In this document: positions 11,641 to 18,916 of the stretch, in pieces
Numbering within the stretch: the first letter of the stretch is position 1
How the letters are laid out: the number at the start of each line of letters is the position of its first letter
From: Terriglobia bacterium
GTDB lineage: Bacteria > Acidobacteriota > Terriglobia > Terriglobales > Acidobacteriaceae
Direction of reading: 5' to 3'
DNA length: 64,000 nucleotides
Assembly: GCA_020072645.1 (NCBI GenBank)
Contig: JAIQGK010000006.1
Coordinates: 124,001 to 188,000, forward strand
The notes under the pieces: generated by a model
Database searches by the model: none
The model's input: only the letters and a program-made list of their open reading frames with translations
Told to the model about the DNA's origin: nothing
Translations under genes and position numbers: made by a program

Positions 11641-11716
11641 GGGCCTGTGGCGCAGCTGGGAGCGCGCTTCCATGGCATGGAAGAGGTCGTCGGTTCGATC
11701 CCGACCAGGTCCACCA
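11641..11716 (+). tRNA. tRNA-Ala (GGC anticodon)
   Basis: The 76 bases fold as a complete cloverleaf: acceptor GGGCCTG with CAGGTCC, D stem GCGC/GCGC, anticodon stem CTTCC/GGAAG around loop ATGGCAT (anticodon GGC, reading GCC alanine codons), T stem GTCGG/CCGAC with loop TTCGATC, discriminator A and an encoded CCA end. It converges on the dch gene with 11 bases between them. Confidence 0.97.
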
Positions 11717-11727
11717 TTTTCAATCAC

Positions 11728-12537
11728 TTACAGCATCTTTTCGCAAGGAGTTTCGGAAAGCATCTGGTCTGCCACCCAGTGCGGCTGGCGTTTTTCCAGG
11801 AAAGCCAGCACTCCTTCCACGGCGTCGGGCTGCCCCATGAGCTGGTCGAGGTAAAGTCGTTCGAGGGCCGGCAAATCGTTCTCCAGCGCGCGCATCAGCG
11901 ACCGTCGACATGCCTGCGCGGCAAAACGCAATGCCGCAGCCGAGCGAGGCAGAAAATCTGACTCGAGCCAGGCATCCAGCTGCCGATCAAGATCGCCGCT
12001 GGAGAAAACTCTGTTGACTAATCCTGCTACATACGCGCGTTCGGCGGTCCAACTGGACCCGGTCAGCACCAATTCCGCAGCGCGCCCCGAACCGATACGC
12101 GCTGGCAAGAGCGCAGCACCTGCCGGAGGAAAAACTCCCAGCTTGATCTCTGGCAGCCCGAGCTGCGCGCTGTCTTCCGCAACAATCAAGTCGCATGCCA
12201 GCGCCAGTTCGAATCCGCCGCCCAGACATTGCCCACGGACCACCGCGATCATCGGCGCGGGTGCAGCCGCCATTTTCAGCAGGAGGTTCCGCAGCTGCAT
12301 CAGCGTATCGCCGATTCGGTCCGGCAGATGCTCTTCGATACTCGCGCCAAAGCTGAAGTGCGCGCCCGCTCCCGCCAGTACGATTGCTTTCAGGTTTTTT
12401 TGCGCGGCCAATTCATTCAATGCCGTACCAAGCCCCAGCATCATGTCTTTGTCCAGGATATTGGCTTTGGGCGCAGCCAGTGTGATCCGCGCGACTTGGC
12501 CGCTGTGTGTAAGTTCCAGCCGGACCTTGTTCCCCAT
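11728..12537 (-). CDS. dch: Cyclohexa-1,5-dienecarbonyl-CoA hydratase (Dch)
   Basis: A 269-residue enoyl-CoA hydratase-superfamily enzyme. The oxyanion-hole regions are visible as HFSFGASIEEHLPDR and RGQCLGGGFELALACDL; the EEHLP and EIKLGVFPP stretches are what I recall as typical of Dch rather than ordinary crotonases. It would hydrate cyclohexa-1,5-diene-1-carbonyl-CoA, the benzoyl-CoA reductase product, to 6-hydroxycyclohex-1-ene-1-carbonyl-CoA. It is the last gene of the minus-strand benzoyl-CoA operon, two bases after oah, with AAAGGTG as ribosome site. Context with Oah, Had and the reductase makes the assignment firm; alone it could be a generic enoyl-CoA hydratase. Confidence 0.88.
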   Translation of the reverse strand: MGNKVRLELTHSGQVARITLAAPKANILDKDMMLGLGTALNELAAQKNLKAIVLAGAGAHFSFGASIEEHLPDRIGDTLMQLRNLLLKMAAAPAPMIAVVRGQCLGGGFELALACDLIVAEDSAQLGLPEIKLGVFPPAGAALLPARIGSGRAAELVLTGSSWTAERAYVAGLVNRVFSSGDLDRQLDAWLESDFLPRSAAALRFAAQACRRSLMRALENDLPALERLYLDQLMGQPDAVEGVLAFLEKRQPHWVADQMLSETPCEKML

Positions 12538-12539
12538 GA

Positions 12540-13658
12540 TTACACCTTTGCCAGTTCCTCTTTGGATGTCTCTGTTCTAGCAACCCACGGCGCGATCTCT
12601 TCAATCAGCTCTTCTCCCCAGCGAGCGCCTTCACCCAGACGTTGCCGCAGCCTAACAAAATCAACTTCACGCTGCTCTTTCGTTCCAAAGTGAAACGCGC
12701 GGAAGCCGGCGTTGGCCTCGGTCATCATATTCAGCGCCAGCCATGCGCGACTGGTCTCACGATTGCGGTCCCAGTGCTCCAGCTTGTGTTTGCGTAGGCT
12801 TTCCACGGTCTTGGTCAGGCAGTCTGGCATGGTGTAAAGCAGTTTGGTGCACATACTCTCCACTGCGTCATCCAGAAGCTTCAGATCAACTATTCCCTCC
12901 GCCATAATTTTCTTGGCCAGACCTTTTTCCTCGCCTGTCTTCCATTCACCCAGCGCCATGCGTCCGTACTCATCCAGAAAGTGGTCGGTGATGACTAGCG
13001 GATTGGCCGTCCATCTTCCATTCACCTTCAGCGCGGGAACAATCTGCGTGAGCCCGCCCAGCGCATAAAAGCGATGCGCGCTCCACGGTTCGCACAAGGT
13101 TGCGCTGGCTATGGCCCGCTCGATTCCCACATACAGTGGCAGAAAGTCTGTGCTGCCGCCATCCGGTACGGAGCCGTGTTTGGGACCGGCCTGGCTGAAG
13201 ATTGCCAGATCGCTGGCAATGGAAAAATCGCAGGCCATGCCGATTTCCTGTCCGCCGCCAACGCGCATGCCGTTCACTCGGCAGATCACCGGCTTGTCGC
13301 AATGCAGGATCGCCGTAACCATGTCATTGAACAGCCGCATGTACTGGCGATATTCCGCGGGAGCGCCGGCATAGATCTCGGCATATTCGCGCGTGTTGCC
13401 GCCACTGCAGAAAGAGCGCGTGCCTGCGCCGGTCAGCACCACCGCCACCGCGGCGCGATCGTTGCTGGCCTGGCGCAATGCCAGGATTACCTCTTTCGCC
13501 GTAGACGTGGTGTAGCTGTTCAGCTCCGCCGGATTGTTCAGCGTGATCCACACGTTGTGGAGTCCGGGAACGGCGCGGCCATCGCGATCATGCACCGGCC
13601 GCTCTTCCACCAGGATTTCTTGAGGAACAAAGTTTTCAACCAGATTGTGGTCTTTCAT
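12540..13658 (-). CDS. oah: 6-oxocyclohex-1-ene-1-carbonyl-CoA hydrolase (Oah/BamA)
   Basis: A 372-residue ring-cleaving hydrolase of the crotonase superfamily, longer than usual crotonases as BamA/Oah proteins are. Recognisable parts are NNPAELNSYTT, FCSGGNTREYAEIYAG, RVNGMRVGGGQEIGMACDF, GPKHGSVPDGGSTDFLPLY and the C-terminal HWDRNRETSRAWLALNMM. It hydrolyses the C-C bond of 6-oxocyclohex-1-ene-1-carbonyl-CoA to give 3-hydroxypimelyl-CoA. The start was set at 13658 because GGGAGG precedes this ATG and an earlier in-frame codon would overlap had. bamA/oah genes are widely used as markers of anaerobic aromatic degradation. Confidence 0.95.
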   Translation of the reverse strand: MKDHNLVENFVPQEILVEERPVHDRDGRAVPGLHNVWITLNNPAELNSYTTSTAKEVILALRQASNDRAAVAVVLTGAGTRSFCSGGNTREYAEIYAGAPAEYRQYMRLFNDMVTAILHCDKPVICRVNGMRVGGGQEIGMACDFSIASDLAIFSQAGPKHGSVPDGGSTDFLPLYVGIERAIASATLCEPWSAHRFYALGGLTQIVPALKVNGRWTANPLVITDHFLDEYGRMALGEWKTGEEKGLAKKIMAEGIVDLKLLDDAVESMCTKLLYTMPDCLTKTVESLRKHKLEHWDRNRETSRAWLALNMMTEANAGFRAFHFGTKEQREVDFVRLRQRLGEGARWGEELIEEIAPWVARTETSKEELAKV

Positions 13659-13674
13659 CGCAGCCTCCCAGGCA

Positions 13675-14742
13675 TTAATTTGGCACAAGCACCACGCGGC
13701 GGCGGAACGCATGCCGCGCGACCCCCAACAGTACTTCCGGCGTTTCGGTTAACGAATGGCGCTCAATGAATGGTTCAATCTTGATCTTCCCGCCCAGCAC
13801 CAGGGCGAGCGCTGCGGGATATTGCTCTGCCGGACAGCCCCAGTTGCCGCAGGCCGTGGCGTCAAAGGCCATCAGGTTTGACAGGCGCACTTCAACTTTC
13901 TTCGGCGTGAATCCAACCACCGCCAGGTAAGCGCCGAAATCGAGCAGGCTGAACGCGGTGACCTGTCCTGCCGCAGCGCCGCTCATCTCAAAAATTTTCA
14001 GCGTCGAGCCGGAAGCCGCCTGCTCGCTGAAAAAGTTGCGCACGCTCGATCGCAGTTGTTTCTCGTCGCTGCGGTCGGCGTTCAGCACCAGAGAAGCTCC
14101 ATATTGCTGGGCAAGTTCCAGGCGTTCCGTATCGATATCGACCGCGACTGCCTTCGCCCCTATAGCTGCGGCAATCTGCACGGCAAAGCTGCCAATGCCG
14201 CCCGCGCCCACAATCACTGCCACCTCGCCGGCCTTCAGCCCGGAACGGCGAATCGCTTCATAAGGCGTGGTCACCGCATCGGCCACCACAGACAGTGCCT
14301 CAAGAGAAACGCCTGCGGGCAGCTTGTCCGGAACGTGGCACAGCCCTCGCGCCGGCACCCGCACATGCGTGGCAAAACCTCCGTCGCCATCATTGCCCGG
14401 CATGAACTGCCGCCGGCACGTAGTTGGCCGGCCTGCTTTGCAGGCTGGGCATTCGCCGCAGGCGATTACCGCCGGCACAATCACTGCCTGCCCAATCCAC
14501 TGGCTAGCCTTGTCGCCCGCGGCAACCACATGTCCGGCAATCTCATGTCCCAGCACCAGTGGAAGCGCATGCCGCGTGGCCACGCCCTCAGCGGCAAAGC
14601 CTACGTCGGTGTGGCAGACGCCGCATCCCGCCACCTTGACGATGACTTCATTTTCCTCCGGCTCAAGTTTCGGCAGCTCCGCCAGATCCAGCGGTTTCCC
14701 AACGGTCGAAAGCTGATAGCCGTATGCTCCCTGGATCGCCAT
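13675..14742 (-). CDS. had: 6-hydroxycyclohex-1-ene-1-carbonyl-CoA dehydrogenase (Had)
   Basis: A 355-residue zinc-dependent medium-chain dehydrogenase. Catalytic zinc ligands Cys40 and the GHE motif are present, with Cys43-His44; the structural zinc site is CGECPACKAGRPTTC; the NAD-binding loop is VGAGGIGSFAVQIAAA. In this setting it would oxidise 6-hydroxycyclohex-1-ene-1-carbonyl-CoA to the 6-oxo compound with NAD+. The substrate is inferred from its place between the reductase genes and oah. GAGGGG stands just before the ATG and only eight bases separate it from bcrD. A general alcohol dehydrogenase is the alternative, made unlikely by context. Confidence 0.9.
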   Translation of the reverse strand: MAIQGAYGYQLSTVGKPLDLAELPKLEPEENEVIVKVAGCGVCHTDVGFAAEGVATRHALPLVLGHEIAGHVVAAGDKASQWIGQAVIVPAVIACGECPACKAGRPTTCRRQFMPGNDGDGGFATHVRVPARGLCHVPDKLPAGVSLEALSVVADAVTTPYEAIRRSGLKAGEVAVIVGAGGIGSFAVQIAAAIGAKAVAVDIDTERLELAQQYGASLVLNADRSDEKQLRSSVRNFFSEQAASGSTLKIFEMSGAAAGQVTAFSLLDFGAYLAVVGFTPKKVEVRLSNLMAFDATACGNWGCPAEQYPAALALVLGGKIKIEPFIERHSLTETPEVLLGVARHAFRRRVVLVPN

Positions 14743-14750
14743 AATTCCCC

Positions 14751-15548
14751 TCAGTTCCTGCTGGCCAGGCGGCGCAAACCCAGCACCGCCGCGCCCAGCG
14801 CGCAGACGTATTCACAATCTTCAGCCACATTCACCTTCACGTTGAGCCGCTGCTCCAGCGCTCGCACCATTCCCTGCTGGTGCGCCACACCTCCGATAAA
14901 GGTCAGCTCGTCTTTTAGCCCCACGCGCTTCAGCAGCGCGCCGGCGCGGTCGGCCAGCGAGTCGTGAATGCCGCGCAAAATATCTTCCACGCTCACGCCG
15001 CTGCTCACGTGGTTGATAATCTCGCTTTCCGCCAGCACCGCGCATACGCTGCTGATGGGGTGCGCATGGGCGGCATGAAGCGAAAGGTCGCCCACCTGCT
15101 CCAGCGGGACCTCCAGATATTTCGCCGCGCGAGCAATAAACATCCCAGAGCCCGCCGCGCACTTGTCATTACTCTTGAAGGTGTTCACGCGGCCGTTATC
15201 TTTTACCGCGATGGCGCGCGTGGTCTGGCTGCCAATATCGAGCACGGCGCCGGGCCGGGGAAAAAGAAAGAAGGCACCGCGCGCGGCAGTGGTAATTTCA
15301 GTGATCGCAATATCGCGAAAGCTCAGGTTGTAGCGGCCAAAACCAGTCGCAGCAATGTAGTCCAAGTCTGCACGCATATTACCCGCCAATGCCTGCTCCA
15401 GCGCTTCGCTGGCTGCCTGGTCAACGTTGATTCCACTCCGCGTGCGCCCGCGGCCCAGGATTCTTAGCTCGCTTCCCGGCGCGTCCTGCGCGGCCACCAG
15501 CGCTTTGGTAAAGCCCGATCCGCAATCAATCCCCGCTACTAACGGCAT
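14751..15548 (-). CDS. bcrD: Benzoyl-CoA reductase ATPase subunit D
   Basis: A 265-residue ASKHA-fold ATPase of the BcrA/BadF/HgdC family. The first phosphate loop is GIDCGSGFTKA; the Fe-S ligand cysteines appear in DKCAAGSGMF and VCAVLAESEI; the second phosphate region is DIGSQTTRAI. With subunit A it hydrolyses ATP to drive electrons from a ferredoxin through a bridging [4Fe-4S] cluster to the BC module. GGAGGGAGC before the ATG at 15548 supports this start over one 24 bases upstream. It overlaps the end of bcrA by 23 bases. The A versus D label follows gene order and is less certain than the family. Confidence 0.9.
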   Translation of the reverse strand: MPLVAGIDCGSGFTKALVAAQDAPGSELRILGRGRTRSGINVDQAASEALEQALAGNMRADLDYIAATGFGRYNLSFRDIAITEITTAARGAFFLFPRPGAVLDIGSQTTRAIAVKDNGRVNTFKSNDKCAAGSGMFIARAAKYLEVPLEQVGDLSLHAAHAHPISSVCAVLAESEIINHVSSGVSVEDILRGIHDSLADRAGALLKRVGLKDELTFIGGVAHQQGMVRALEQRLNVKVNVAEDCEYVCALGAAVLGLRRLASRN

Positions 15549-16365
15549 GCTCCCTCCAAACACTGGATTCAAAACTTTCGCCCAGCTTCTCCAGCGAGAA
15601 CAGCGTAGCGCCCACCGCGCCCATAAACTGTGCGTCCGGCGTGACGATGATTTTTTGTCCCAGCACCGTTTCCAGCGCCTGCACCATGCCCACGTTGCGG
15701 GCCACGCCTCCGGTCATCGTGACAAGCGGTTCAATGTTCACGCGGCGCGCCAGTGACATCGTGCGCTTGGCAATCGCCAGGTGCACGCCTCCCATGATGT
15801 CTTCAGGACGCTTGCCTTGTGAGAGGTAAGAGAGAATGTCAGATTCCACAAAGACCGTGCATACCGTTGCGATTTTCACAGGGCGAGTCGCGCGGAGAGA
15901 CAGCGGGCCAATATCGTCCAATCCGATGCCCATCACCTCGGCGGCATTGGCCAGGAAGCGCCCGGTTCCGGCGGCGCATTTATCGTTCATCACAAAATCC
16001 AGCACTTCGCCGGAAGGGCCCACGCCGATGGCCTTTGCGTCCTGCCCGCCCATATCGATTACCGTGCGTGTGCCGGGACAGAGAAAGTGCGCGCCGCGGG
16101 CATGGCAGCTGATCTCCGTCATCTGTGTGTGGCCGAAAGAGATGTTGTAGCGGCCATAACCTGTGCCCACCACAAAGCCCACATCGGCCTGCGCGACGCC
16201 CGCCGCCTGGCAGCACTCATCGAAAGCCTTTTCCGCCGCCTTGCGCACGTTGGCGCCGGTATCAATCAGCGAACGCGACAGCACCTTCACGCCGTCTCCG
16301 TTGGTGCCCATCAGCACCGCTTTCGTCTGCGTTGATCCTACGTCCACTCCTGCTGCAATTCTCAT
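15526..16365 (-). CDS. bcrA: Benzoyl-CoA reductase ATPase subunit A
   Basis: A 279-residue paralog of the downstream subunit: GVDVGSTQTKAV phosphate loop, DMGGQDAKAI second phosphate region, and cysteines in DKCAAGTGRF and VCTVFVESDI that should bind one side of the shared [4Fe-4S] cluster. It forms the ATP-hydrolysing AD half of class I benzoyl-CoA reductase. GAGG six bases before the ATG at 16365 favours it over a GTG at 16377. The presence of two different ATPase subunits plus B and C subunits distinguishes this from 2-hydroxyacyl-CoA dehydratase systems, which use a single activator. Confidence 0.92.
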   Translation of the reverse strand: MRIAAGVDVGSTQTKAVLMGTNGDGVKVLSRSLIDTGANVRKAAEKAFDECCQAAGVAQADVGFVVGTGYGRYNISFGHTQMTEISCHARGAHFLCPGTRTVIDMGGQDAKAIGVGPSGEVLDFVMNDKCAAGTGRFLANAAEVMGIGLDDIGPLSLRATRPVKIATVCTVFVESDILSYLSQGKRPEDIMGGVHLAIAKRTMSLARRVNIEPLVTMTGGVARNVGMVQALETVLGQKIIVTPDAQFMGAVGATLFSLEKLGESFESSVWREHAVSSGD

Positions 16366-16373
16366 TTGTGACC

Positions 16374-17651
16374 TCACGCGCTCACGGCGTGTGCTGCCGT
16401 GCGCTTGGCGTGCTCAAGAGATTCAAAGAATGCGTCGATCCGGTTCTTGGTTTGGGCTTCAGCAAAATAGCGCGGGTCTTCCAGGTCAGACTCGATGTAT
16501 AAAGTCGGTACGCCCAGTTGCTTGGTGAAGTAGTCGCGCATATCGCCCTGTCCGGCAGAAAACAGGCGGCAGCTTTTCACAAAATGGATGATCACTCCGT
16601 CGGCGTTCCATTCCTGCACATAGCGCCGGATCTGGTCATAGCGCTGCAAATAGTTACGGTTGGTTACGTTTTGCGCCAGCATGTGCATGGCTACCGATTC
16701 AAACGGAGTTTTTGCATCGTGCCGGAAGCCAAACTCCCACAACCCGCCGACCGTGGAGTACGTGGACGCCACGGCCACCGCCTTCCAACTGGCAAACATG
16801 TCACGGAAGCTGCGGAAATAGGGATACGGCGGCGGCCCTTCCACCACGACGCGGAAACGCTCCTGGTCATAAACACCCTCACCGGCTTTGACCTTCTGCT
16901 GCAGTTCGTTTAATGCCGAGCGAAAGAACTCCACGCCCTCGCGTTTTCCGCGATAGACATATAAAGGTCCCATTAGAGTGATGGCGTCAAAATATGCGTC
17001 AAACGGGGACGGAGAATTTTTTGCCAGGTGCTTGATCTGTGACCACAGCTCCTCAACTTCGCTGGAGTAAGCCACGGACTGGCGGAAACGGTCGTAATCG
17101 AACTTGCGTCCAATCAGCTCCTCCATCTGCCCCACAACTTCCTTGAGCTGTCGCACGACATAGTCAATGTCCGCCTGCGATGGCGTGTCATTTCGCAGAA
17201 ACGGTACATCCAAAACGAAGAGCGGCGCTCCGGTAAAGGCAGCCACGTGCTCAAACCACTTCACGTAGGTATTGCACCCCACGAAGTTGCACAGCACCAG
17301 CGTGGGCTTGGGCAGCCGGCCCCCGGTAGGCGTGATGCCTTTCAGCATGCAACCGATATCGGCCTTCACATAGGCGCAGTTGTCTCCGGCGTAACCCATC
17401 TCCTCGGCCGCAAGAATCGGCTCCAGCGACTGGTGCCGTATCGCCAGTTGCAGCGCATTTACCTCTGGATACTGCGGAATGGCGCCAAAGCCTTCCAGCA
17501 ACTCGACGCAGTTGCCGGAGATCATCATCGATACGGTGGGCGGCTCTCCAGTTTCGGCCGCATGGTCCAGACGCTGGTACCAATCCAGCATCAGGTCTTT
17601 CTGCTGCTGGTGAATGCTTCCGCGATATTCGCTTACGGGTTTCTCGGCCAT
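16374..17651 (-). CDS. bcrB: Benzoyl-CoA reductase subunit B
   Basis: A 425-residue protein of the HgdB/BcrB family, which holds the [4Fe-4S] clusters and part of the benzoyl-CoA site. Conserved-looking cysteines occur in SGNCVELLEG, KADIGCMLKG, NFVGCNTYVKWFE and HFVKSCRLFSAG. With subunit C it accepts electrons one at a time from the ATPase module and reduces the aromatic ring to the 1,5-diene. AGGAG nine bases before the ATG at 17651 sets the start; an in-frame TTG lies 21 bases upstream. It follows bcrC after about 60 bases and lies directly against bcrA. Confidence 0.93.
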   Translation of the reverse strand: MAEKPVSEYRGSIHQQQKDLMLDWYQRLDHAAETGEPPTVSMMISGNCVELLEGFGAIPQYPEVNALQLAIRHQSLEPILAAEEMGYAGDNCAYVKADIGCMLKGITPTGGRLPKPTLVLCNFVGCNTYVKWFEHVAAFTGAPLFVLDVPFLRNDTPSQADIDYVVRQLKEVVGQMEELIGRKFDYDRFRQSVAYSSEVEELWSQIKHLAKNSPSPFDAYFDAITLMGPLYVYRGKREGVEFFRSALNELQQKVKAGEGVYDQERFRVVVEGPPPYPYFRSFRDMFASWKAVAVASTYSTVGGLWEFGFRHDAKTPFESVAMHMLAQNVTNRNYLQRYDQIRRYVQEWNADGVIIHFVKSCRLFSAGQGDMRDYFTKQLGVPTLYIESDLEDPRYFAEAQTKNRIDAFFESLEHAKRTAAHAVSA

Positions 17652-17711
17652 CGAGTCAGCTCCTAAAATCAATCTGTTTCGTTCGGTCTGGTTTGCTTAA
17701 TCCTTGTTTTC

Positions 17712-18866
17712 TTAATCAAAGACCAGGGACTCGACAAACGTTTCCACTTCCGTCCGCAGGCGATCGAAGGTGAAGAGCTTTTCTTCAAACTCCAGCAGCA
17801 AGTGGGGCAGCCCCATTTCGTCGATCTTCTTTTTGAACAGCACAAAATCGAAATACGCCGGCTCGCAGAACTTCGCGATCAGGAAAATCACAGCTTCAGC
17901 CCGCGTGCTGCGTACCTTTTCTGCCAGGCCTTCCCAGCGCGGTTTGGAAAAATCATGTCGTACAGACGAATACACCGAGCGATGCACATAACTTTCGGCC
18001 AGCGCGCGGACCGGGTCGCCGCTGATGGGCACGTCTTCTGTAAACCACCGCTGCGCAATGGCCAGATCGTCTTCCACCACGTCACAGCCGGCGTTCTCCA
18101 GAAGACGAATGAGTTCTAGAGGCGGCTGCTCGCAGAACGCGCCTTCAATCACTACCCGGACCGCGTCCCGCTTCTTCCCTGGCCGCGTCGGGAGATAGTC
18201 CAGCGCCTGTTTCAGTATCTTGATGTGCTCTTCCACCGGCATGAAGTTGCCGCTGCGGATGAGCACGTAGGATTCCCAGGCGCGCAACAGGTGCGGGCTT
18301 TGCGCGCGCAGCTCATAGAGTTGCCGCACCAGACTCCGCTGGATGTTATAGAGCGCGATGCTATGGCGGAGCGCCGCGGGCTGTATCGGCGCTCCACCCA
18401 GGCGCTCCAGTTCAACGATGATCCGGCGATATTCCTGCTCCAGAAACTCGACGCTGGAGTCCGACGTACTGTGCGGCAGATGCAGAAAATCCACATATAT
18501 CTGCGGGTAGTTGCGCTTAATTACGAAGCAGAGGTTGCGGGCCGAATCGCAGATGGAAGAAAAAAGCAGGCCGTCAAATGGCTCCAGGTGGCCGGTCATG
18601 GCCATTTCCATGGTGGTTTTGATGATGGAGCAGATGAAGGAACCGAAGCGGGAATCGGCATGCTGTATATCCAGCCGGTCGCCCGCGCCGCTCAATAGCA
18701 CCGGGAGCATGCCTGCGGCATGGACCAGCTCCACGGGCGCATACACGGGAAAGAAAGCCACGGATTTCGCGCCCGGATGCTGTTCTTTCCAGCGCCGTAC
18801 GCTGGCAAACGAGAGGTCCTGCATCTCTTCATAAAAACTATCGAACGTTCGTTCGAATACTTTCAT
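17712..18866 (-). CDS. bcrC: Benzoyl-CoA reductase subunit C
   Basis: A 384-residue HgdB-fold partner of BcrB. Cysteines in RFGSFICSII, SSICDSARNLCF and LIAKFCEPAYFDF fit the cluster-binding pattern of the C subunit. It is the first gene of the operon bcrC-bcrB-bcrA-bcrD-had-oah-dch. Two starts are possible: ATG 18866, or an in-frame GTG 15 bases upstream that touches the GAGGGG sequence; GAGGGG is about 14 bases from the ATG, which is long. A CRP/FNR-like palindrome ends 35 bases upstream of the ATG. A ferredoxin gene, found next to these genes in some denitrifiers, is absent. Confidence 0.93.
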   Translation of the reverse strand: MKVFERTFDSFYEEMQDLSFASVRRWKEQHPGAKSVAFFPVYAPVELVHAAGMLPVLLSGAGDRLDIQHADSRFGSFICSIIKTTMEMAMTGHLEPFDGLLFSSICDSARNLCFVIKRNYPQIYVDFLHLPHSTSDSSVEFLEQEYRRIIVELERLGGAPIQPAALRHSIALYNIQRSLVRQLYELRAQSPHLLRAWESYVLIRSGNFMPVEEHIKILKQALDYLPTRPGKKRDAVRVVIEGAFCEQPPLELIRLLENAGCDVVEDDLAIAQRWFTEDVPISGDPVRALAESYVHRSVYSSVRHDFSKPRWEGLAEKVRSTRAEAVIFLIAKFCEPAYFDFVLFKKKIDEMGLPHLLLEFEEKLFTFDRLRTEVETFVESLVFD

Positions 18867-18900
18867 GAAAATAATAATCACCCCTCGCCGCTAGAAGGGA

Positions 18901-18916
18901 TGTGACGTGCGTCACT
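18901..18916. promoter_or_regulatory. CRP/FNR-family-like palindrome before bcrC
   Basis: TGTGA-CGTGCG-TCACT is a near-perfect copy of the TGTGA-N6-TCACA layout bound by CRP-type regulators; the inner GTGAC/GTCAC arms are perfect. It lies 35 bases before the bcrC ATG. On the minus strand a -10-like TAGAAT (complement of 18945-18950) lies upstream of it, which would make the palindrome a downstream, repressor-like site; a TATTAT at 18871-18876 (complement) downstream of it would suit activation instead. The regulator is not in the window. Confidence 0.5.

What the first reader, a model, noticed from the sequence alone, without database searches (positions are those of the whole stretch)
11728..18866. 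Complete class I benzoyl-CoA reductase operon in a putative acidobacterium
Seven closely packed minus-strand genes (bcrC, bcrB, bcrA, bcrD, had, oah, dch) encode ATP-dependent benzoyl-CoA reductase and the three subsequent enzymes to 3-hydroxypimelyl-CoA. The cysteine and ATPase motifs are directly visible. This pathway is established in Thauera, Azoarcus, Magnetospirillum and Rhodopseudomonas; I do not know it as an established trait of Acidobacteria. Its presence would imply anaerobic or micro-oxic aromatic degradation in this lineage.
Basis: partly seen in the sequence, partly recalled or inferred. Interest (0 to 1): 0.78.

Follow-up and report, generated by a model that had tools for sequence, protein, structure and literature searches.

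The report
Acidobacterial benzoyl-CoA reductase operon with aromatic regulon
An acidobacterium carries a complete set of genes for breaking aromatic rings without oxygen, built around a version of the ring-reducing enzyme that belongs to a broad, apparently unstudied branch found in many uncultured bacteria, and probably switched by a DNA site that lies inside the start of the first gene.

Summary
In detail: window 11728-18866 (minus) encodes bcrC-bcrB-bcrA-bcrD-had-oah-dch, intact, in an Acidobacteriota genome. Had and Oah pass curated cut-offs; the reductase subunits and Dch do not, but all six cluster cysteines are present. The novelty claim is weaker: bcrABCD-dch-had-oah was already reported in acidobacterial MAGs in 2016 (PMC4842900, passages).

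What looks new: (1) The reductase is neither Thauera-, Bzd- nor Mbd-type. It falls in a separate clade (99/99) of Acidobacteria and, at 56-61% BcrB identity, Elusimicrobia, Rokubacteria, Planctomycetes and others, mostly without Oah in the flanks held. (2) In its family, operons with this reductase and with a Thauera-like one share one Had-Oah lineage. (3) A PaaR-like operator, CGAACGnnCGTTCG, covers codons 4-9 of bcrC. It occurs three times in the 6.4 Mb genome, each at aromatic genes: bcrC, the 4-hydroxybenzoyl-CoA reductase operon, a TetR/BoxB-like cluster. Its Arg codon is the rare CGA in 21 of 21 genes.

Best reading: a benzoyl-CoA pathway under a TetR repressor and probably a CRP/FNR-type regulator. 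I found no biochemistry on this clade.

The parts
17712..18866 (-). bcrC-like large subunit of the reductase (HGD-D fold); Cys 84, 111, 339 in ORF numbering
   Evidence: ATG at 18866 (ORF opens at 18881 with GTG)
16374..17651 (-). bcrB-like large subunit; Cys 99, 133, 368 in ORF numbering
   Evidence: AlphaFold model pLDDT 82.7, best PDB match MbdO 9g87_A, TM 0.85
15526..16365 (-). bcrA-like ATPase/activase, short form (the Thauera-like BcrA of the same family is 445 aa)
   Evidence: (best PDB MbdQ 9gai_D, E 4e-92)
14751..15548 (-). bcrD-like ATPase/activase
13675..14742 (-). had, 6-hydroxycyclohex-1-ene-1-carbonyl-CoA dehydrogenase
   Evidence: TIGR03201 425.5 bits over cut-off 338.65
12540..13658 (-). 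oah, 6-oxocyclohex-1-ene-1-carbonyl-CoA hydratase (ring opening)
   Evidence: TIGR03200 538.9 bits over cut-off 464.45
11728..12537 (-). dch, cyclohexa-1,5-dienecarbonyl-CoA hydratase
   Evidence: best family TIGR03189, 218.6 bits, below cut-off 292.5
18841..18856 (-). palindromic operator TCGAACGAACGTTCGA over the codons for F-E-R-T-F-D (4-9) of bcrC (core GAACGAACGTTC 18843-18854)
18902..18915 (-). CRP/FNR-type palindrome GTGACGCACGTCAC, 36-49 bp upstream of the bcrC ATG
   Evidence: GTGA-N6-TCAC 58-68 bp upstream of the bcrC operator in 15 of 21 loci that have the operator at bcrC
11641..11716 (+). tRNA-Ala(GGC), convergent, ends 12 bp from the end of dch; marks the edge of the operon

Best explanation
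The operon encodes an ATP-dependent aryl-CoA (most likely benzoyl-CoA) reductase plus Dch, Had and Oah, taking benzoyl-CoA through cyclohexa-1,5-diene-1-carbonyl-CoA and two further intermediates to 3-hydroxypimelyl-CoA. BcrA/BcrD should hydrolyse ATP and push low-potential electrons from a [4Fe-4S] cluster into BcrB/BcrC, where the ring is reduced. The reductase belongs to a distinct clade, a fourth beside the Thauera-, Bzd- and Mbd-types. Expression is probably repressed by a PaaR-like TetR protein that binds CGAACGnnCGTTCG over the first codons of bcrC and releases on an aryl-CoA. The same operator would control the 4-hydroxybenzoyl-CoA reductase operon, the regulator's own BoxB-like/aldehyde dehydrogenase cluster and an outer-membrane receptor. 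A CRP/FNR-type protein probably acts from a site 36-49 bp upstream of the start codon. Shown here: genes, motifs, phylogeny, operator positions, codon constraint. Inferred: substrate, product, electron donor, regulator-operator pairing, effector.
For: Had and Oah over curated cut-offs. All 21 genomes with Oah over cut-off, of 200 in the family, also have a BcrB (12 window-type, 9 Thauera-like), and none of the 170 genomes without a BcrB match has Oah over cut-off. Two deeply separate reductases sit beside one shared Had-Oah lineage, which suggests both make the same product. Cluster cysteines invariant in 85 of 85. Benzoate-CoA ligase 609.5 bits (cut-off 375.25) and 4-hydroxybenzoyl-CoA reductase alpha 1009.7 bits (cut-off 994.55) elsewhere in the genome. 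Operator (14-bp form) in 3 places genome-wide, each at aromatic genes; of 21 further sites that I chose in 14 relatives, 19 lie at tetR, hcr, had or the receptor. CGA is used at the operator in 21 of 21 genes against 4.3% of 581 other Arg codons. The PaaR operator CNAACGNNCGTTNG quoted in PMC6651687 fits exactly.
Against: All four reductase subunits and Dch score below equivalog cut-offs. Most members of the reductase clade lack Oah: 11 of 80 named loci have it within the flanks held (many flanks are cut by contig ends), and 8 of 10 window-type genomes in the phylum draw have none over cut-off anywhere, so the ancestral substrate or route may differ. The benzoate-CoA ligase region (19.9 kb) has no operator. 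No ferredoxin or 2-oxoacid:ferredoxin oxidoreductase is in the operon; I did not search for one elsewhere. Site counts alone are not significant: the reversed control occurs twice in the own genome against 3, and the 12-bp core 15 times against 17; 93 of 200 genomes have a 14-bp site, many of them without a reductase, and most of those sites were not examined. The in vitro-selected PaaR consensus in the same paper, AACnAACGTTnGTT, has another spacing; by eye the bcrC site fits it with one mismatch and the hcr site does not. Hcr gamma and beta score below their cut-offs.
Confidence: 0.78

Rival explanations
1. The reductase acts on a substituted or different aryl-CoA (for example hydroxy- or methylbenzoyl-CoA), not mainly benzoyl-CoA; the operon then serves a lignin-type monomer.
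For: Closest solved structure by sequence and fold is 3-methylbenzoyl-CoA reductase. Many clade members are beside other genes, such as amidohydrolases or BadH-like dehydrogenases, and lack Oah.
Against: Hcr, at the same operator, would yield benzoyl-CoA itself; Had and Oah here are orthologous to those beside a reductase whose BcrB passes the benzoyl-CoA reductase subunit B cut-off (712 bits, cut-off 487).
Confidence: 0.25
2. BcrB/BcrC-like subunits form a 2-hydroxyacyl-CoA dehydratase or other double-cubane type enzyme, unrelated to dearomatisation.
For: Same fold and Pfam family; HadB is the second protein in the fold ranking (29% identity). The activases also match the dehydratase activators.
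Against: BcrB and BcrC score best with benzoyl-CoA reductase models; the tree separates the clade, with Thauera-like and Mbd-like enzymes, from HadBC and Bzd (100/99); BcrC C250 is shared with those two groups and absent from the Bzd and Had sequences tested; the operon contains had-oah-dch. Only one dehydratase was in the tree.
Confidence: 0.05
3. The palindrome over the bcrC start is an RNA hairpin or a conserved peptide, not a protein-binding site.
For: It lies in the coding sequence and is flagged as a terminator-like stem by a scan that found 14 such stems against 8.7 in shuffles.
Against: It recurs just upstream of hcr, tetR and receptor genes; a conserved peptide does not explain 21 of 21 CGA codons; it fits a published TetR operator.
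Confidence: 0.1

Closest known systems
Thauera/Rhodopseudomonas-type class I benzoyl-CoA reductase (BcrCBAD / BadDEFG)
   Same: Four subunits, cluster cysteines, operon with had and oah; genes of this type exist in the same family (L081-L083) with orthologous Had-Oah
   Different: BcrB about 42% and BcrC about 39% identical to the family's own Thauera-like copies, short BcrA (280 aa against 445), separate clade, below all equivalog cut-offs
3-methylbenzoyl-CoA reductase MbdONQP (PDB 9g87, 9gai; Thauera chlorobenzoica)
   Same: Nearest solved structures by sequence and fold; short activase subunits
   Different: MbdO/N group with other acidobacterial loci (L120, L122, L123), not with the window (100/100); 33% identity in the fold alignment
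Bzd-type reductase (BzdNO; PDB 8s02)
   Same: Fold and subunit plan
   Different: Deeply separate in the tree; 26% identity; BcrC C250 absent
Acidobacteriaceae bin 07 of PMC4842900
PaaR of Thermus thermophilus (TetR, phenylacetate regulon)
   Same: Operator CNAACGNNCGTTNG, quoted in PMC6651687 (passages), fits CGAACGnnCGTTCG; its own operon there lists PaaA-D and a bifunctional aldehyde dehydrogenase/enoyl-CoA hydratase, comparable with the ech, ALDH and PaaA_PaaC-domain genes here
   Different: Here the sites also cover bcr and hcr operons; the two regulators were not compared directly; the in vitro-selected PaaR consensus has another spacing

Membership tests
Class I (ATP-dependent) benzoyl-CoA reductase | Four subunits: two HGD-D and two BcrAD_BadFG ATPases, in one operon | tested here: met
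   all four at 40% identity or more in 72 of 80 named loci of the clade, cut contigs included
Class I (ATP-dependent) benzoyl-CoA reductase | Conserved cluster cysteines, three in each large subunit | tested here: met
   85 of 85
Class I (ATP-dependent) benzoyl-CoA reductase | Phylogeny with known BCRs rather than dehydratases | tested here: met
   with Thauera-like and Mbd-like groups, 100/99, apart from HadBC; a single dehydratase reference, and no authentic Thauera BcrBC in the tree
Class I (ATP-dependent) benzoyl-CoA reductase | ATP-driven reduction of benzoyl-CoA to the 1,5-diene | not testable with these tools
   needs protein
Thauera-type BCR (TIGR02259-02263 equivalogs) | Scores over curated cut-offs | tested here: not met
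   all four subunits below; comparison: an acidobacterial Thauera-like BcrB (L083) scores 712 against 487, its BcrA 548 against 578
Mbd-type 3-methylbenzoyl-CoA reductase | Clade with MbdON | tested here: not met
Bzd-type BCR | Scores over TIGR03190/03191 and clade with BzdNO | tested here: not met
   117 and 128 bits against 454 and 449
Benzoyl-CoA degradation pathway to 3-hydroxypimelyl-CoA | Oah and Had over cut-off | tested here: met
Benzoyl-CoA degradation pathway to 3-hydroxypimelyl-CoA | Dch over cut-off | tested here: inconclusive
   best model TIGR03189, 219 of 292.5 bits
PaaR-like TetR regulon | Operator CNAACGNNCGTTNG at the regulator's own gene and at aromatic genes | tested here: met
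PaaR-like TetR regulon | Regulator binds the operator and responds to an aryl-CoA | not testable with these tools
   only TetR_N and TetR_C_24 domains shown

The most novel reading that the evidence does not exclude
The window's reductase represents a fourth, uncharacterised subclass of class I aryl-CoA reductases, spread through several uncultured phyla, that works with several different ring-opening modules (Oah; MenB/BadI-like crotonases; amidohydrolases). In Terriglobia it was joined to the Had-Oah module of Thauera-like operons and placed under one PaaR-like repressor that also governs a BoxB-like (aerobic-type) cluster, so one aryl-CoA sensor would cover oxic and anoxic aromatic degradation.
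Probability: 0.5. Interest if true: 0.72.

Novelty: new variant of a known kind. Interest (0 to 1): 0.6.

Why it matters
Acidobacteria are abundant in soils and peat (general knowledge), where aromatic carbon persists under low oxygen. A patchily inherited reductase clade that scores below standard cut-offs may be under-reported in surveys of anaerobic aromatic degradation. The regulon gives a testable link between anaerobic ring reduction, 4-hydroxybenzoyl-CoA reduction, an aerobic-type cluster and an outer-membrane receptor. The operator inside a coding start is a clean case of DNA-level constraint shaping a protein's N-terminus.

Tried and rejected
Rejected: proteobacterial contig (kinship). 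Rejected: Mbd subtype, suggested by the PDB matches, because the trees place MbdO/N elsewhere. Left open: whether Had-Oah of this reductase type form one clade; the best tree does not hold them together but the AU test does not reject it (p 0.133), so the history and direction of module exchange are open. The order of the new, Thauera-like and Mbd-like clades among themselves is unresolved (54/22).

Led nowhere: a plasmid search with a Thauera-like BcrB found only distant proteins, 15 records at 22-26% identity. BoxB proper is not met (243 bits, cut-off 499). None of 12 relatives shares the window's flanking genes within the DNA held (one of the 12 is only 5.7 kb), consistent with mobility but not a test of it. 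Paper searches (10 of 10) listed no paper that I recognised as describing this reductase clade or this regulon in Acidobacteria; the library holds open-licence papers only, most listings were judged by title and start of abstract, and of the papers opened (PMC4842900, PMC13170169, PMC6651687, PMC4424350, PMC10936416) I read passages, none in full.

Rows dropped: 8 loci from the first BcrB+BcrC tree for short or missing BcrC or BcrB (listed), and 14 unnamed loci skipped there as copies of named loci (checked afterwards: 13 agree in all 200-mers, L067 in 64 of 69, its stretch being longer than L131). The 40-row careful tree is a hand-picked subset. In one search, 10 of 50 loci had no Had that passed my length and identity filter, 30 hand-picked rows were kept. 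The 20 regions were chosen by me from a truncated listing, leaving out sites already known at bcrC and favouring genomes with a reductase and congeners. A first count of the CRP/FNR-type site gave 16 loci; re-checking showed that in L073 it lies before the amidohydrolase, not bcrC, so 15.
Full report
Identity and completeness. The window is G000:C6:124001-188000 of a 6.44 Mb, 99% complete genome. The seven ORFs are intact, on the minus strand and tightly packed. Had and Oah pass curated cut-offs; the reductase subunits and Dch are recognised by the expected models but fall below cut-off. The genome is acidobacterial: same genus code as G539, a 17.3 kb stretch of which is contained letter for letter in the named Acidobacteriaceae record DAHUXR010000015.1.

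Distribution. In 396 genomes drawn from the phylum, Oah passes cut-off in 36. In 200 genomes of the family, BcrB matches 30: 19 of the window's type (78-100% identity, one of them partial), 10 of a second type (39-44%), 1 distant (24%). Oah passes in 21 of 200 in the same draw: 12 with the window type, 9 with the second, none without a BcrB. In the window's genus, 5 of 8 genomes drawn have a BcrB. Of the 7 window-type genomes without Oah over cut-off, three have operon contigs that end inside the operon (G564, G398, G491). G457 has 1.3 kb after bcrD without had before its contig ends, and G265, G472 and G497 show bcrCBAD without had-oah-dch in the DNA held.

Which reductase. The second type has a 445-aa BcrA; one of its BcrBs scores 712 bits with the BCR subunit B model, cut-off 487 (L083), so I call it Thauera-like. 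The window's BcrB scores 329. In a 40-row maximum-likelihood tree of BcrB+BcrC the window's clade is one group (99/99), apart from Thauera-like (100/100), Mbd-like with MbdON (100/100), and Bzd (100/100); the first three, with L116, are together separated from Bzd and HadBC (100/99). A 102-row FastTree also holds the clade together (85 loci, support 0.965). By record titles the clade includes, besides Acidobacteria, Elusimicrobia, Rokubacteria, 'Deltaproteobacteria'/Binatia, Planctomycetota, WOR-3, Methylomirabilota, Eremiobacterota and Sulfobacillus, nearly all MAGs or bins.

What the clade is paired with. Of 80 named loci, 11 hold canonical Oah and 12 a weak Oah-like crotonase within the DNA held. 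Two of the latter (L161, L203) were scored and lie between Oah, BadI and MenB, below the cut-offs of all three. Other neighbours seen are an amidohydrolase, BadH-like or other short-chain dehydrogenases, a CRP-family regulator and a Rieske oxygenase. In the family, Had-Oah of window-type and Thauera-like operons form one lineage (26 rows, 100/100; it also holds three rows from other families); holding the 14 window-type rows together is not rejected (p 0.133). So deeply different reductases share a recent downstream module. I infer exchange of modules, direction unknown.

Regulation. The palindrome TCGAACGAACGTTCGA covers codons 4-9 of bcrC (window 18841-18856). Among 80 named loci, 78 with a recognised bcrC, 15, all Acidobacteria or Terriglobia by title, have the core at the bcrC start; 12 of the 13 named loci with had at 45% identity or more have it (L146 lacks it). 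In 21 genes with the site the Arg codon is always CGA, against 4.3% of 581 Arg codons in the rest of bcrC; the genes are related, so these are not 21 independent events. In the own genome the 14-bp form CGAACGnnCGTTCG occurs 3 times (reversed control 2): at bcrC; 66 bp upstream of hcr gamma; 26 bp upstream of a TetR gene heading a cluster with enoyl-CoA hydratase, aldehyde dehydrogenase, BoxB-like (PaaA_PaaC domain) and CoA-transferase genes. The shorter core occurs 17 times (control 15); one more of these is 43 bp upstream of an Oar-like outer-membrane receptor, and the other 13 were not linked to aromatic genes, most of them not examined. Counted by hand, the 14-bp form occurs 38 times against 20 control sites in the 19 window-type genomes, and 17 against 12 in the 10 Thauera-like ones; sites in the genomes without a reductase were not summed. 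Of 21 sites in 20 chosen regions from 14 relatives: 12 at tetR, 2 at hcr, 1 at had of a Thauera-like operon, 4 at the receptor, 2 (L307, L324) at nothing recognised. Thauera-like operons L081-L083 carry the core at the start of had. PMC6651687 quotes the Thermus PaaR operator as CNAACGNNCGTTNG, and gives its own selected consensus AACnAACGTTnGTT (passages). A CRP/FNR-type palindrome GTGA-N6-TCAC lies 58-68 bp upstream of the bcrC operator in 15 of 21 loci that have that operator; 42 such palindromes occur in 555 kb of 34 loci.

Host context. A benzoate-CoA ligase (609.5 bits, cut-off 375.25) and 4-hydroxybenzoyl-CoA reductase alpha (1009.7, cut-off 994.55) are encoded elsewhere. The ligase region has no operator.

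Fold. An AlphaFold model of BcrB (11 sequences, pLDDT 82.7) matches MbdO best, then HadB and BzdO. The fold alone does not separate reductase from dehydratase.

Literature. PMC4842900 (passages) reported hcrAB, bcrABCD, dch, had, oah and boxB in an Acidobacteriaceae MAG in 2016; PMC13170169 (passages) similar genes in two Acidobacteriota MAGs. The pathway in this phylum is therefore not new as a gene inventory. In the 10 paper searches listed under Tried and rejected I found nothing on the subclass or the regulon.

Noticed in passing
window 11641-11716 and 11728: The operon ends 12 bp from the 3' end of a convergent tRNA-Ala(GGC), and none of 12 relatives shares flanking genes with the window in the DNA held, suggesting the operon moves.
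   Followed up: partly
L073:6701-7692 and L072:5201-6180: In two relatives the operator core also lies before an amidohydrolase gene near bcrC (18 bp upstream of the ORF in L073, about 85-95 bp in L072), with a CRP/FNR-type palindrome beside it, hinting at another ring-processing enzyme in the same regulon.
   Followed up: partly
L120, L122, L123: Other acidobacterial families carry an Mbd-like reductase, and L125 groups with Bzd, so the phylum holds several distinct class I subtypes.
   Followed up: partly
L203: A Sulfobacillus benefaciens MAG carries the new reductase clade with crotonase and dehydrogenase genes upstream; unexpected for an organism I recall as an aerobic acidophile.
   Followed up: no
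L271:5079-8216: Oar-like outer-membrane receptor with the operator core 43 bp upstream; possible uptake route for aromatic compounds.
   Followed up: partly
L163, L177: In two Rokubacteria loci the bcrA-like gene starts about 5.6-5.8 kb after bcrB starts; the DNA between was not examined.
   Followed up: no
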